Shown: piece after piece, positions 8,655 through 13,042 of the stretch
How positions within the stretch are numbered: position 1 is the first letter of the stretch
Layout: each line of letters begins with the position of its first letter
The notes under the pieces: model-generated
What the model saw: only the letters and a program-made list of their open reading frames with translations
What the model was told of the DNA's origin: nothing
Databases searched by the model: none
Source of the DNA: an uncultured Clostridia bacterium
GTDB taxonomy: Bacteria > Bacillota > Clostridia > UBA1381
Length of the DNA stretch: 64,000 nucleotides
Direction of reading: 5' to 3'
Assembly (NCBI GenBank): GCA_947624165.1
Contig: CANQJC010000002.1
Coordinates: 62,001 to 126,000 of the forward strand
Made by a program: the position numbers and the translations under genes

Positions 8655-8670
8655 TTAAAAATGATATTAA

Positions 8671-8701
8671 AAAACCCGAAAGCATTTGCTTTCGGGTTTT
8701 T
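8671..8701. terminator. Bidirectional terminator between tsf and the SCP2 gene
   Basis: A 13-bp perfect stem (8671-8683 with 8688-8700) with a 4-nt loop and T/A tracts on both sides serves the convergent genes. Confidence 0.92.
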
Positions 8702-8708
8702 ATTATGA

Positions 8709-9278
8709 TTATTTCTTTGTTGTTTTTGTTGCTGCCGTTGATGCTGCGGGCTTTGCCGCCGTCTTTGCTGTTGTTGCCGCCTTTGCGGGAGCCGCTGCCT
8801 TTGCGGGTGCCGCCGCCTTTACGGGAGCCGCAGGCTTTGTTGCTTTTGCTTCAGATTTTTTTGTTTCTGTCTTTTTTGCGGGAGCAGTCTTTGATGTTTT
8901 CTTCGCGGCTGTCTTCTTGGCGGGAGCCTTTTTAGCCGCTGTCTTCTTTGCAGGCGCTTTTTTAATTGTGTTCTTCCAGTCTGTGATTTTAGAAGCGTCT
9001 CCCTGAACGTAAGCCTCGCCGTTGGCAACCGCCTTGTCCAGGCTCATTCTTCCGGCAATAACAGCCAGAAGTGCTGACTTTGTAATGTTAAGAACAGCGT
9101 TGTTATCGTAATAATCGTAGGGCTCAACAGAGAGCTTGCCGTCTTTTACCTCCGCATAGAAGGTACCGCCGCAGTCCTCGTCGGTAAACGTTACCTGAAC
9201 CGCAAAATCCGATAATCCGCTCGCGTCAGCTTTGTCGAATTTACCTTTTACCTTTAAAAATGCCTGTTCGAATGTCAT
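8709..9278 (-). CDS. SCP2 sterol-carrier-like domain fused to a Lys/Ala/Pro-rich histone H1-like tail
   Basis: This is a 189-residue protein. Residues ~1-105 form an SCP2 (sterol-binding-like) fold, a small hydrophobic-ligand domain (AVQVTFTDEDCGGTFYAEVKDG, the LNITKSALLAVIAGRMS helix, then AYVQGDASKI). From about 106 to the end the chain is almost only Ala, Lys, Pro and Thr, in imperfect APAKKTAAKK-type repeats, like histone H1 or AlgP tails and expected to bind nucleic acid or other polyanions. No signal peptide is seen. SCP2 proteins of this size in Clostridia normally end after the domain, so the tail is unusual. The function of the combination is unknown. The SD AAAGGAG and a consensus promoter lie upstream. 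Confidence 0.85.
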   Translation of the reverse strand: MTFEQAFLKVKGKFDKADASGLSDFAVQVTFTDEDCGGTFYAEVKDGKLSVEPYDYYDNNAVLNITKSALLAVIAGRMSLDKAVANGEAYVQGDASKITDWKNTIKKAPAKKTAAKKAPAKKTAAKKTSKTAPAKKTETKKSEAKATKPAAPVKAAAPAKAAAPAKAATTAKTAAKPAASTAATKTTKK

Positions 9279-9355
9279 TTTCGAAATTCTCCTTTCGCCT
9301 GACAGATAATTCTGTCGCTAATGTGTATAATTAGGTTAACCGTAACCTTTACTTT

Positions 9356-9385
9356 AGTATACATCAAATAAGAACAAATTGTCAA
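9356..9385 (-). promoter_or_regulatory. Promoter of the SCP2-tail gene
   Basis: On the minus strand a perfect TTGACA (9385-9380) is 18 bp upstream of TATACT (9361-9356). A GGTTAACCGTAACC partial dyad (9334-9347) lies in the early transcribed region and may be an operator. The 9279-9584 stretch holds only this promoter and the two below. Confidence 0.8.
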
Positions 9386-9584: not shown

Positions 9585-9661
9585 GCACCCGTAGCTCAGT
9601 TGGATAGAGCGCAAGACTCCGATTCTTGAGGCCGCAGGTTCGATCCCTGTCGGGTGCGCCA
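9585..9661 (+). tRNA. tRNA-Arg, anticodon CCG
   Basis: This 77-nt cloverleaf has a GCACCCG/CGGGTGC acceptor stem, a GCTC/GAGC D stem and an anticodon stem CAAGA/TCTTG around loop CTCCGAT (anticodon CCG, reading CGG). The T arm is GCAGG-TTCGATC-CCTGT, and the 3' CCA is encoded. A long minus-strand ORF over this region is the common tRNA shadow, not a gene. Confidence 0.96.
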
Positions 9662-11191: not shown

Positions 11192-11548
11192 TTATTTTTT
11201 TGACTTTGAACGAAAAATTACCGATACGAGAAATCCGAAAACAAGAGCCGCTGCGACACCGCCGGACGAAGCGGTCAGACCGCCGGTGAATATGCCTAAG
11301 AATCCGCGTTCGTTCACAGCTTTTGCAACGCCCTTGCACAGGTTGTAGCCAAAGCCCGTGAGCGGTACGGTCGCACCGGCTCCGGCGAATTTCACGAGCG
11401 GTTCATATACGCGTATAAGCTGTAAAAATACGCCGAGAACGACAAACGTTACAAGTATTCTTGCCGGAGTAAGCTTTGTCTTGTCTATTAGGATCTGTCC
11501 TATAACGCATATAACTCCTCCGACGGCAAACGCCTTTAAATAATCCAT
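11192..11548 (-). CDS. spoVAE: Stage V sporulation protein AE
   Basis: This 118-residue polytopic membrane protein belongs to the SpoVA channel, which moves Ca-dipicolinate into the forespore and out at germination. The sequence YLKAFAVGGVICVIGQILID and the FAGAGATVPLTGFG motif are shared with SpoVAC, its paralogue two genes upstream. It follows spoVAD by 14 bp. Expression is expected from sigma-G in the forespore, but I could not identify a convincing sigma-G promoter. Confidence 0.95.
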   Translation of the reverse strand: MDYLKAFAVGGVICVIGQILIDKTKLTPARILVTFVVLGVFLQLIRVYEPLVKFAGAGATVPLTGFGYNLCKGVAKAVNERGFLGIFTGGLTASSGGVAAALVFGFLVSVIFRSKSKK

Positions 11549-11562
11549 GCAATACCCTCCAT

Positions 11563-12570
11563 TCAGTTTTCGATCGTTACCGCGTGCGCGATCGCCGGGA
11601 TGCTTTCACCCTGCTCGACGACCATGGGATTCATCAGCGCGCCGGTAGCCATAACAAGTATTTTTTTCAAATTGCGTTTTTTAAGCTCTCCGAATATATA
11701 GCCGCAGAAAACGCTGCCGCAGCACCCGCACCCGCTGCCGCCCGCGTGAACGTCCTGCGCTTCGATGTCATATATGAGCTTGCCGCAGTCGCGGTGATTT
11801 TTCCGTATGTCGAATCCCTCTTTGAGCATAAGCTCGCAAAGTATATCGGAGCCTATAACTCCCAGATCGCCCGTTAATATCATGTCGTACTCATCGGGCT
11901 TTGCGCCCGTGTCCGCAAAATGCGCAAGGAGTGTATCGATTGCCGCCGGAGCCATTGCCGCGCCCATATTGCTTATATCCGTCACGCCCTTGTCTATCAC
12001 CTTGCCTGTGGTAACGTGCGTAACGCGCGGACCGTCGCCGTGTGATGAAAGAACGGCGCAGCCCGCGCCCGTGACGGTCCATTGCGCCGACGGAGTACGC
12101 TGCCCGCCGTATTCGAGAGGGTTGCGGAACTGTCTCTCCGATGAACAAAAATGACTTGACGTAAGGCACATTACGTAGTCCGCGCAGCCGCCGCCTATCA
12201 GCATGGAGCCTATCGACATGCTTTCCGTCATTGTGGAGCATGCGCCGTAAAGACCGAAGAACGGTATGTCGAGATCGCGCACGCTGTAATGCGCTCCGAC
12301 GCATTGATTCAGCAAATCTCCCGCAAGAATATAATTTATATCGCTTTGCTTGAGACGCGCCTTTTCGAGCGCGAGGAGAGCCGTCTGACGCTGAAGCGTG
12401 CTTTCGGATTTCTCCCATGTTTTCTCACCGAGAGTGTCGTCCGTAAGCACTTTGTCGAACGTGCTGCCAAGCGGACCTTCGCCCTCCTTAACTCCCGCTA
12501 TGGACGCTGTTTCAAGTATCACGGGAGGATTTTCTATTTTGACTGTCTGAGTACCGATTCTTGTGTTCAT
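11563..12570 (-). CDS. spoVAD: Stage V sporulation protein AD
   Basis: This 335-residue protein has a thiolase-like fold and binds dipicolinic acid on the spore inner membrane. Family features include the N-terminal IGTQTVKIENPPVILETASIAG, the GACSTMTES loop in the thiolase active-site position, HAGGSGCGCCGSVFCGY and a conserved C-terminus SIPAIAHAVTI. It is essential with SpoVAC/E for DPA uptake. It lies between spoVAC (13-bp gap) and spoVAE. Confidence 0.97.
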   Translation of the reverse strand: MNTRIGTQTVKIENPPVILETASIAGVKEGEGPLGSTFDKVLTDDTLGEKTWEKSESTLQRQTALLALEKARLKQSDINYILAGDLLNQCVGAHYSVRDLDIPFFGLYGACSTMTESMSIGSMLIGGGCADYVMCLTSSHFCSSERQFRNPLEYGGQRTPSAQWTVTGAGCAVLSSHGDGPRVTHVTTGKVIDKGVTDISNMGAAMAPAAIDTLLAHFADTGAKPDEYDMILTGDLGVIGSDILCELMLKEGFDIRKNHRDCGKLIYDIEAQDVHAGGSGCGCCGSVFCGYIFGELKKRNLKKILVMATGALMNPMVVEQGESIPAIAHAVTIEN

Positions 12571-12583
12571 ACGCCGTCCCTCC

Positions 12584-13042
12584 TTAAAATAAGCTTATGA
12601 TCCAATAGATAAGCCCCGCTGCGCACGAAGCGAATGTGCCGTACAGTATCACGGGACCGGCTATCGTGAATATCTTCGCGCCTACGCCCAAGACCATTCC
12701 TTCCGTCTTTGCTTCCAGAGCGGGCGAAACAACGGAATTTGCGAAACCCGTTATGGGTACGACGGTACCCGCTCCGGCAAATTTGGCGATTTTGGGATAT
12801 ATGTCAAGTCCGGTAAGCAGCGCGCCCAGAAAAATGAGAGTGATCGATGTGAGTGTCGAAGCGTCCTCCTCGCCGAAGCCGCATTTCCCGAAAACGGCGA
12901 TAAGCACCTGACCCAATACGCATATTATCCCGCCGGACACAAACGCCTTCAGACAGTTTGAAAATATCTTCGAATCGGGAGTTTTTTGTTTCACATATTC
13001 GTTGTATTCCTTATTTGTCATTTCATGCTTCAAATTTTTCAC
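12584..13042 (-). CDS. spoVAC: Stage V sporulation protein AC
   Basis: This protein of about 145-152 residues has four hydrophobic segments and is the mechanosensitive-type channel component for Ca-DPA release. Conserved sequence NCLKAFVSGGIICVLGQ and KFAGAGTVVPITGFAN. The reading frame opens with GTG at 13042, but an ATG at 13021 (MTNKEYNEYVKQK) matches the usual family N-terminus better; the ribosome site AAAGG does not decide it. It is the first gene of spoVAC-D-E; spoVAA/AB are not nearby. Confidence 0.95.
   Translation of the reverse strand: MKNLKHEMTNKEYNEYVKQKTPDSKIFSNCLKAFVSGGIICVLGQVLIAVFGKCGFGEEDASTLTSITLIFLGALLTGLDIYPKIAKFAGAGTVVPITGFANSVVSPALEAKTEGMVLGVGAKIFTIAGPVILYGTFASCAAGLIYWIISLF

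What the first reader, a model, noticed from the sequence alone, without database searches (positions are those of the whole stretch)
8709..9278. SCP2 lipid-binding domain joined to a histone H1/AlgP-like Lys-Ala-Pro tail
The first ~105 residues form an SCP2-type hydrophobic pocket. The rest is almost only A, K, P and T in KKAPAKKTAAKK-like units, typical of DNA or polyanion binding tails. The combination is not one I recognise and suggests a lipid-responsive nucleoid, ribosome or polyphosphate partner. It has its own perfect -35 promoter.
Basis: partly seen in the sequence, partly recalled or inferred. Interest (0 to 1): 0.5.

Follow-up and report, generated by a model that had tools for sequence, protein, structure and literature searches.

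The report
Lipid-binding protein with histone-like tail
A small protein of gut bacteria joins a likely fat-binding pocket to a long, floppy, positively charged tail like that of histone H1; the same kind of tail sits on two glycogen-building enzymes of the same bacterium, which hints at a shared way of anchoring proteins to DNA, RNA or membranes.

Summary
The minus strand, 9278-8709, encodes 189 residues. Residues 1-105 have an SCP2 fold (Pfam over cut-off; predicted structure matches SCP2 proteins and alkylsulfatase C-termini). Residues 106-189 are almost only A, K, T and P, net +23, predicted disordered. The promoter TTGACA-N18-TATACT is real; 33 of 34 upstream regions examined have its like.

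The architecture is widespread: 73 of 81 proteins (the nearest 80 of 179 named loci, plus the window) carry such a tail. Length varies (46-88 residues in the genus) yet charge is kept, and identical tail repeats differ in codons about as much as random choice gives, so the peptide rather than the DNA seems maintained. One distant relative has the arm at its N-terminus.

New here: in the genus the arm recurs chiefly on this protein (15 of 16 genomes), branching enzyme GlgB (12) and glycogen synthase GlgA (11). One genome of a distant family has armed GlgA, GlgB and polyphosphate kinase, but an unarmed SCP2 protein. I read the arm as an electrostatic tether to a cellular polyanion, most likely nucleic acid, as in PhaF and AlgP; a membrane tether as in UbiJ is the main rival. 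PolyP is unlikely as general partner. Binding was not tested.

The parts
8709..9278 (-). CDS, 189 aa, SCP2 domain plus Lys/Ala/Thr/Pro tail
8964..9278 (-). SCP2-fold domain, residues 1-105, net charge -5
   Evidence: Pfam; AlphaFold2 block pLDDT 87-95 over residues 1-100; structural matches; charge
8712..8963 (-). polybasic, predicted disordered tail, residues 106-189, net charge +23
   Evidence: composition; block pLDDT 48-57 over residues 111-189
9356..9385 (-). promoter TTGACA-N18-TATACT
   Evidence: similar promoter in 33 of the 34 upstream regions given, the window included
9301..9316 (-). leader inverted repeat GACAGA-ATTA-TCTGTC, a short hairpin just ahead of the ribosome site
   Evidence: read by eye; folded in 14 genus leaders, the window included
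9289..9295 (-). ribosome-binding site AAAGGAG
   Evidence: read by eye
8670..8701 (.). terminator stem-loop between this gene and the convergent tsf gene; found on + by the scan, a T run also on - by eye

Best explanation
A monocistronic, probably abundant cytosolic lipid-binding protein. Its SCP2 domain would hold an acyl chain or similar lipid (inferred from fold). Its disordered Lys/Ala/Thr/Pro arm is an electrostatic tether that keeps the protein on a cellular polyanion, most likely nucleic acid (nucleoid or ribosomes), in the manner of the arms of PhaF and AlgP. Shown here: the architecture, its spread, the kept composition of the arm, and arms of like make-up on glycogen enzymes and on nucleic-acid proteins. 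Inferred: ligand, partner, abundance and purpose.
For: SCP2 fold. Arm in 73 of 81 proteins; net +13 to +23 in the 29 tails (28 relatives and the window's own copy), with K 678 against R 14. Codon mismatch between identical tail pentamers is 796 of 1655 (0.48) over the 15 genus proteins; for the window 48 of 95, against 0.49 expected at random. The arm is N-terminal in one distant relative (L248), as expected of a tether. Similar arms on ParB-family protein and trigger factor and, by eye, on TopA, IF-2 and FtsK. Near-invariant promoter, 33 of 34. AlgP and PhaF arms bind DNA (PMC9239181, PMC3574117, passages).
Against: No binding data. Similar arms also sit on glycogen enzymes, whose substrate is not a nucleic acid. 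G014, a 99% complete genome of the same genus, lacks the protein, so it is dispensable. 8 of 81 relatives lack such a tail, and G116 and G396, which have arms on other proteins, have unarmed SCP2 proteins. No conserved neighbour gene points to a pathway. In two genus members identical pentamers differ in few codons (L039 6 of 35, L045 24 of 140), so recent duplication occurs. The acidic domain (mean net -6.6 in 78 tailed rows) could instead bind its own tail.
Confidence: 0.48

Rival explanations
1. The arm is a membrane tether: lysines hold the lipid carrier on anionic phospholipids so that the SCP2 domain can pick up or deliver lipid at the bilayer.
For: It fits a lipid-binding domain best. 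In E. coli UbiJ an SCP2 domain is followed by a flexible region (129-165) whose K/R residues contact the membrane in simulations (PMC9499169, passages).
Against: Similar arms sit on GlgA, GlgB, ParB-family protein and trigger factor, which are soluble proteins by general knowledge. Apart from Ala and Pro the window tail has at most one hydrophobic residue in 84 (count).
Confidence: 0.22
2. The arm anchors storage-polymer machinery: glycogen enzymes and the lipid carrier share an arm that ties granules to the nucleoid or to one condensate, as proposed for PhaF and PHA granules.
For: In the genus the unit KK[APTS]3KK lies in the SCP2 protein in 15 of 16 genomes, in GlgB in 12 and in GlgA in 11; the other kinds of gene that I could name by eye have it in 4 genomes at most. 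GlgA arms in 20 of 21 further family members read. Separate recurrence in family f45 on GlgA (3 genomes), and on GlgB and PPK1 (one genome, G116); on GlgP in one f54 genome.
Against: The traits separate. G014 and G023 (both 99% complete) have armed GlgA and no SCP2 protein found by two searches; G019 and G028 (81% and 86% complete) likewise by one. G133 has an armed SCP2 protein and an unarmed GlgA (its second GlgA match was not read). G116, with armed GlgA, GlgB and PPK1, has an unarmed SCP2 protein (L251). No PHA synthase found in 16 genus genomes.
Confidence: 0.14
3. The tail is a neutral or merely solubilising low-complexity extension that expands and shrinks without a partner.
For: Length varies from 46 to 88 residues in the genus. 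The label 'tail' needs 9 changes on the domain tree, at least 6 forced by well-supported branches. L039 and L045 show signs of recent duplication.
Against: Charge and composition persist across the genus while codons are about randomised overall, and the longest exact DNA repeat in the window tail is 11 bases. Lys is used almost without Arg.
Confidence: 0.11
4. The tail binds polyphosphate, as shown for AlgP's association with polyP granules.
For: AlgP associates with polyP granules and its KPAA tail is needed for their spacing (PMC9239181, passages). PPK1 in one genome of a distant family itself carries such an arm (L301).
Against: PPK1 found in 6 of 16 genus genomes, 5 of them among the 15 with the SCP2 protein; the one genome without the protein has PPK1; PPK2 in 0 of 16; the window's genome (82% complete) showed neither.
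Confidence: 0.05

Closest known systems
SCP2 / non-specific lipid-transfer family (PF02036; rabbit SCP2 1c44) and alkylsulfatase C-terminal domain (PF14864; Pisa1 2yhe)
   Same: Domain over both Pfam cut-offs; VIA Z 15.8, 1.5 A over 102 residues to 2yhe and Z 12.2, 2.5 A over 108 residues to 1c44.
   Different: 16% and 23% identity to these two; stand-alone with a polybasic tail; ligand unknown; stretch VEPYDYxD conserved in this subfamily.
UbiJ (E. coli)
   Same: SCP2 domain followed by a flexible region with lysines and arginines.
   Different: UbiJ works in ubiquinone synthesis with UbiK and has a helical C-terminus (PMC9499169, passages); here the tail is longer and almost pure A/K/T/P.
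PhaF and AlgP (Pseudomonas)
   Same: An N-terminal part with another job plus an H1-like Lys/Ala/Pro arm that binds DNA (PMC9239181, PMC3574117, passages).
   Different: Different N-terminal parts (helical by those papers); no PHA synthase found in this genus.
Chlamydial Hc2 (PF07382)
   Same: Lysine-rich repeats with length variation between strains (PMC2848022, start of abstract in the listing).
   Different: The window protein scores 19.3 against a cut-off of 40; it has an SCP2 domain, which Hc2 lacks as far as I recall.

Membership tests
SCP2 (PF02036) | Profile score over curated cut-off | tested here: met
   31.0 bits against 21.3; 47 of 53 aligned members match at E <= 0.001
SCP2 (PF02036) | SCP2 fold | tested here: met
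   AlphaFold2 model, block pLDDT 87-95 over residues 1-100; the 46 Foldseek matches at E <= 0.001 are SCP2-like, UbiJ and alkylsulfatase-type chains
SCP2 (PF02036) | Lipid bound in the cavity | not testable with these tools
   needs ligand assay or crystal structure
Alkylsulfatase (PF14864 as a part) | Metallo-beta-lactamase catalytic domain in the same protein | tested here: not met
   189 aa; no other domain over cut-off in Pfam
Histone H1-like Hc2 (PF07382) | Profile score over curated cut-off | tested here: not met
   19.3 bits against 40; 10 of 53 members match at E <= 0.001, composition-driven in my reading
Histone H1-like Hc2 / AlgP-type arm | DNA binding by the arm | not testable with these tools
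   needs a binding assay
PhaF-type phasin | PHA synthesis in the cell | tested here: not met
   PhaC_N found in 0 of 16 genus genomes, 77-99% complete

The most novel reading that the evidence does not exclude
Gut Clostridia use one interchangeable histone H1-like arm as an addressing tag. It is added, at either end, to the lipid carrier and to glycogen synthase, branching enzyme, phosphorylase and polyP kinase. It gathers carbon-storage and lipid-carrier proteins on the nucleoid, or in one condensate, so that stores are spread between daughter cells or spores. (Odds lowered from 0.17 to 0.15 on checking, because G116, with three armed storage enzymes, has an unarmed SCP2 protein.)
Probability: 0.15. 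Interest if true: 0.72.

Novelty: new variant of a known kind. Interest (0 to 1): 0.5.

Why it matters
Both halves are known kinds, but their union is common in uncultured Clostridia, and my ten literature searches (openly licensed PMC papers only) showed no description of it in what I saw. If the arm is a tether, it would be a simple, repeatedly acquired addressing device, shared by a lipid carrier and glycogen enzymes. It would extend the PhaF/AlgP idea of granules tied to the chromosome to glycogen, which can be tested by deleting one tail.

Tried and rejected
Operon or neighbour clue: clustering of ORFs around 80 named loci plus the window found no neighbour family in more than 13 loci; tsf and rpsB, next to the gene in the window, in 6 each, window included. 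Many loci are cut by contig ends. Rejected as a functional clue.

PolyP partner; not favoured. PHA or phasin role: PhaC not found. HU with its own tail: HU found in 16 of 16 genus genomes; the 16 best matches, one a genome, lie in open frames of 94-109 aa, so HU itself has no long tail.

DNA slippage as origin of the tail: not the general reason. The wider set of 63 proteins with repeats gives 2351 of 5945 (0.40) against a mean random expectation of 0.44, and L039 and L045 fall well below theirs, so some recent duplication exists.

A specific SCP2-glycogen pair: rejected as obligatory, because the arm traits separate.

The pattern KK[APTS]3KK has noise: over 16 genus genomes 114 places against 33 for the reversed pattern, and in G014 2 against 11. 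Several places gave no open frame with the motif or an unrelated protein. Of the places (13 genomes) I fetched 20 stretches only.

Papers: searches found 0 papers; some searches listed papers, none of which describes an SCP2 protein with such a tail in what I saw. I read passages only of PMC9239181, PMC3574117 and PMC9499169, and the start of the abstract of PMC2848022 in the listing.

Dropped or failed rows: L029 was left out because my script took the wrong strand (the same contig is L103, 108 aa, no tail). Of the 81 proteins the 8 counted as untailed are L079, L080, L098, L103, L106, L107, L108 and L110 (short, weakly charged, acidic, or out of frame by eye). In one search the label rule was slightly looser (78 tailed of 93) and the tree warns of few columns. 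In one search the GlgA reference was lost by a script error; GlgA was identified. Genus members and L032-L045 are the same genomes seen twice; they were not added together.

Full report
What is there. Window 8709-9278 holds one gene on the minus strand. Its protein has 189 residues. Residues 1-105 belong to the SCP2 superfamily: Pfam PF14864 38.4 bits (cut-off 27) and PF02036 31.0 bits (cut-off 21.3). An AlphaFold2 model on 53 aligned sequences has block pLDDT 87-95 over residues 1-100 and 48-57 from residue 111 on. The model's best solved matches are SCP2 proteins, UbiJ and the C-terminal domains of alkylsulfatases: VIA Z 15.8 with 1.5 A over 102 residues for 2yhe, and 12.2 for rabbit SCP2 1c44. 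A profile search of PDB sequences finds SCP2 proteins first (1c44 at 3.1e-5) and weakly the alkylsulfatases. Residues 106-189 are K25 A31 T14 P8 S3 E2 plus one other, net +23. Four KK[APTS]3KK units lie in the window, all in this tail; 0.01 are expected by chance.

Expression. TTGACA-N18-TATACT lies at 9385-9356. I gave the 250 bases upstream of the start in 34 members: the window and 33 of the 80 named loci, mostly the nearest ones. Of these, 33 have TTGACA-N17/18-TATACT or TATAAT; the exception, L059, has TTGGCA. No shuffled control was run for that count. So sharp a conservation suggests a strong housekeeping promoter, hence an abundant protein (inference). In the 14 genus leaders, the window included, a short inverted repeat lies just before the ribosome site. 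In 13 of them it is GACAG..CTGTC or AACAG..CTGTT, and in L044 a different stem. The gene looks monocistronic: it is convergent with tsf with a terminator between them, and a tRNA-Arg gene lies upstream in the other direction.

Spread. With the full protein, 29 of 61 genomes match: 15 of 16 in the genus, 13 of 21 in the rest of the family and 1 of 24 in the rest of the order. With the domain alignment, 58 of 391 genomes of the class match. The genus member without a match, G014, is 99% complete, and searches with the domain profile and PF02036 did not find it there either; the PF02036 search also missed G012, which one search found. A scan of named genomes found 179 loci with a relative and kept the best 80. 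Their titles name Clostridia, Clostridiales, Eubacteriales, Oscillospiraceae, Ruminococcus, Lachnospiraceae, Ornithomonoglobus, Bacillota or just 'bacterium'; many are metagenome bins from animal gut. Of these 80 plus the window, 73 carry a tail of at least 25 residues with K+R at or above 20% and net charge at or above +6. Tail length is 26-115, median 70, median net +17. The other 8 are short, weakly charged, acidic or out of frame. The 99 more distant named loci were not seen.

Is the tail real biology or slippage? Identical pentamers within one tail were compared codon by codon. Over 15 genus proteins 796 of 1655 codons differ (0.48), and in the window 48 of 95, where a random draw from the tail's own codons would give 0.49. 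So the repeats are mostly old or held at protein level. Two genus members differ less than expected (L039 6 of 35, L045 24 of 140), which points to recent duplication there. Lysine is used 678 times and arginine 14 times in 29 tails. On a tree of 93 domains the label 'tail' needs 9 changes, at least 6 forced by well-supported branches (few columns, so treat it as a guide). In one distant family the arm is at the N-terminus (L248) while a sister has none (L251). Domains of tailed members are more acidic (mean -6.6, 78 rows) than those of untailed ones (-3.6, 12 rows), but kinship is not corrected for.

The unexpected link. I searched the window's own genome for KK[APTS]3KK. There were 8 places: 4 in this gene and 4 in two other genes on contig C29 (the reversed pattern gave 2). 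Those two are glycogen branching enzyme GlgB and glycogen synthase GlgA, both with C-terminal arms. Over 16 genus genomes there were 114 places against 33 for the reversed pattern. The unit lies in the SCP2 protein in 15 genomes, in GlgB in 12 and in GlgA in 11. Other kinds of gene that I could name by eye (ParB linker, FtsK N-terminus, a REP-type transposase, a membrane protein with a zinc ribbon) have it in at most 4 genomes each. Incomplete genomes may hide more.

I then took 80 chosen genomes and looked for GlgA: 72 have it. In one search I read the C-termini in the 30 loci which that search returned (L216-L245; L217 is the genus member G014), which are the best matches. In the window's family outside the genus, 20 of 21 have a lysine-rich tail of 49-186 residues, net +9 to +24, and one, G022, only 18 residues. 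In the 8 loci outside the family there is none, nor in G040; the other matches were not read. The arm also occurs on GlgA in the distant family f45 (G116, G142, G377), on GlgB and polyphosphate kinase in one genome there (G116; L302, L301), and on glycogen phosphorylase in one f54 genome (L311). The same fetches showed arms on trigger factor, a ParB-family protein and a Sir2-type deacylase and, by eye, on TopA, IF-2 and FtsK.

The SCP2 arm and the glycogen-enzyme arm are separable. G014 and G023 have armed GlgA and no SCP2 protein found, and so do the less complete G019 and G028. G133 has the armed SCP2 protein (L259) and an unarmed GlgA (L245). G116, with armed GlgA, GlgB and PPK1, has an unarmed SCP2 protein (L251), and G396, with an armed trigger factor, likewise (L262).

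How it may work. The simplest reading is an electrostatic tether. H1-like Lys/Ala/Pro arms in bacteria are documented on AlgP and PhaF: they bind DNA and are thought to tie polyP or PHA granules to the nucleoid (PMC9239181 and PMC3574117, passages). The proteins that bear such arms here include several with nucleic-acid partners, which favours nucleic acid. The lipid-binding domain favours the membrane instead, and UbiJ is a precedent for an SCP2 domain with a basic flexible part that touches the membrane in simulations (PMC9499169, passages). PolyP is a poor general partner: PPK1 was found in 6 of 16 genus genomes, 5 of them with this protein, and PPK2 in none. PHA synthase was found in none of 16. 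These absences are limited by completeness of 77-99%.

Against my reading: no binding was measured, the ligand is unknown, the gene can be lost, no neighbour hints at a pathway, arms come and go between relatives, and the purpose of arms on glycogen enzymes is itself open.

Verdict. Observation confirmed; interpretation partly supported; a new variant of a known kind. The recurrence of one kind of arm on a lipid carrier and on glycogen enzymes is the part worth following.

Noticed in passing
L141 1863-3899 and 6421-8181 (own genome, contig C29): Branching enzyme GlgB and glycogen synthase GlgA end in Lys/Ala/Thr/Pro arms. In the 11 genus GlgA tails read, a conserved KEP....NPF stretch lies between two basic blocks (by eye).
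   Followed up: partly
window 9301-9316 and homologous leaders: A short hairpin with changing stem sequence lies shortly ahead of the ribosome site in 14 genus leaders; it might stabilise the mRNA or be a protein site.
   Followed up: partly
L301 1766-3499: Polyphosphate kinase of a genome of a distant family (G116, f45) carries an N-terminal lysine-rich arm of roughly 90 residues.
   Followed up: no
L296 742-1698: A Sir2-type deacylase of the same genome carries a Lys/Ala/Ser tail; lysine acetylation of such arms might be regulated.
   Followed up: no
L192, L193, L213: REP-type transposase-like proteins (named by eye) end in a lysine-rich tail closed by KNLPSWLL.
   Followed up: no
L106 / L140: One relative of the SCP2 protein has a 223-residue extension that starts Lys/Thr-rich and then turns into an acidic repeat (net -11).
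   Followed up: no
window 9585-9661: tRNA-Arg (ccg) on the plus strand just upstream, divergent from the gene.
   Followed up: no
window 11192-13042: spoVA genes (SpoVAC/AEB and SpoVAD families) lie near; probably a chance neighbour, since no neighbour is widely conserved.
   Followed up: partly
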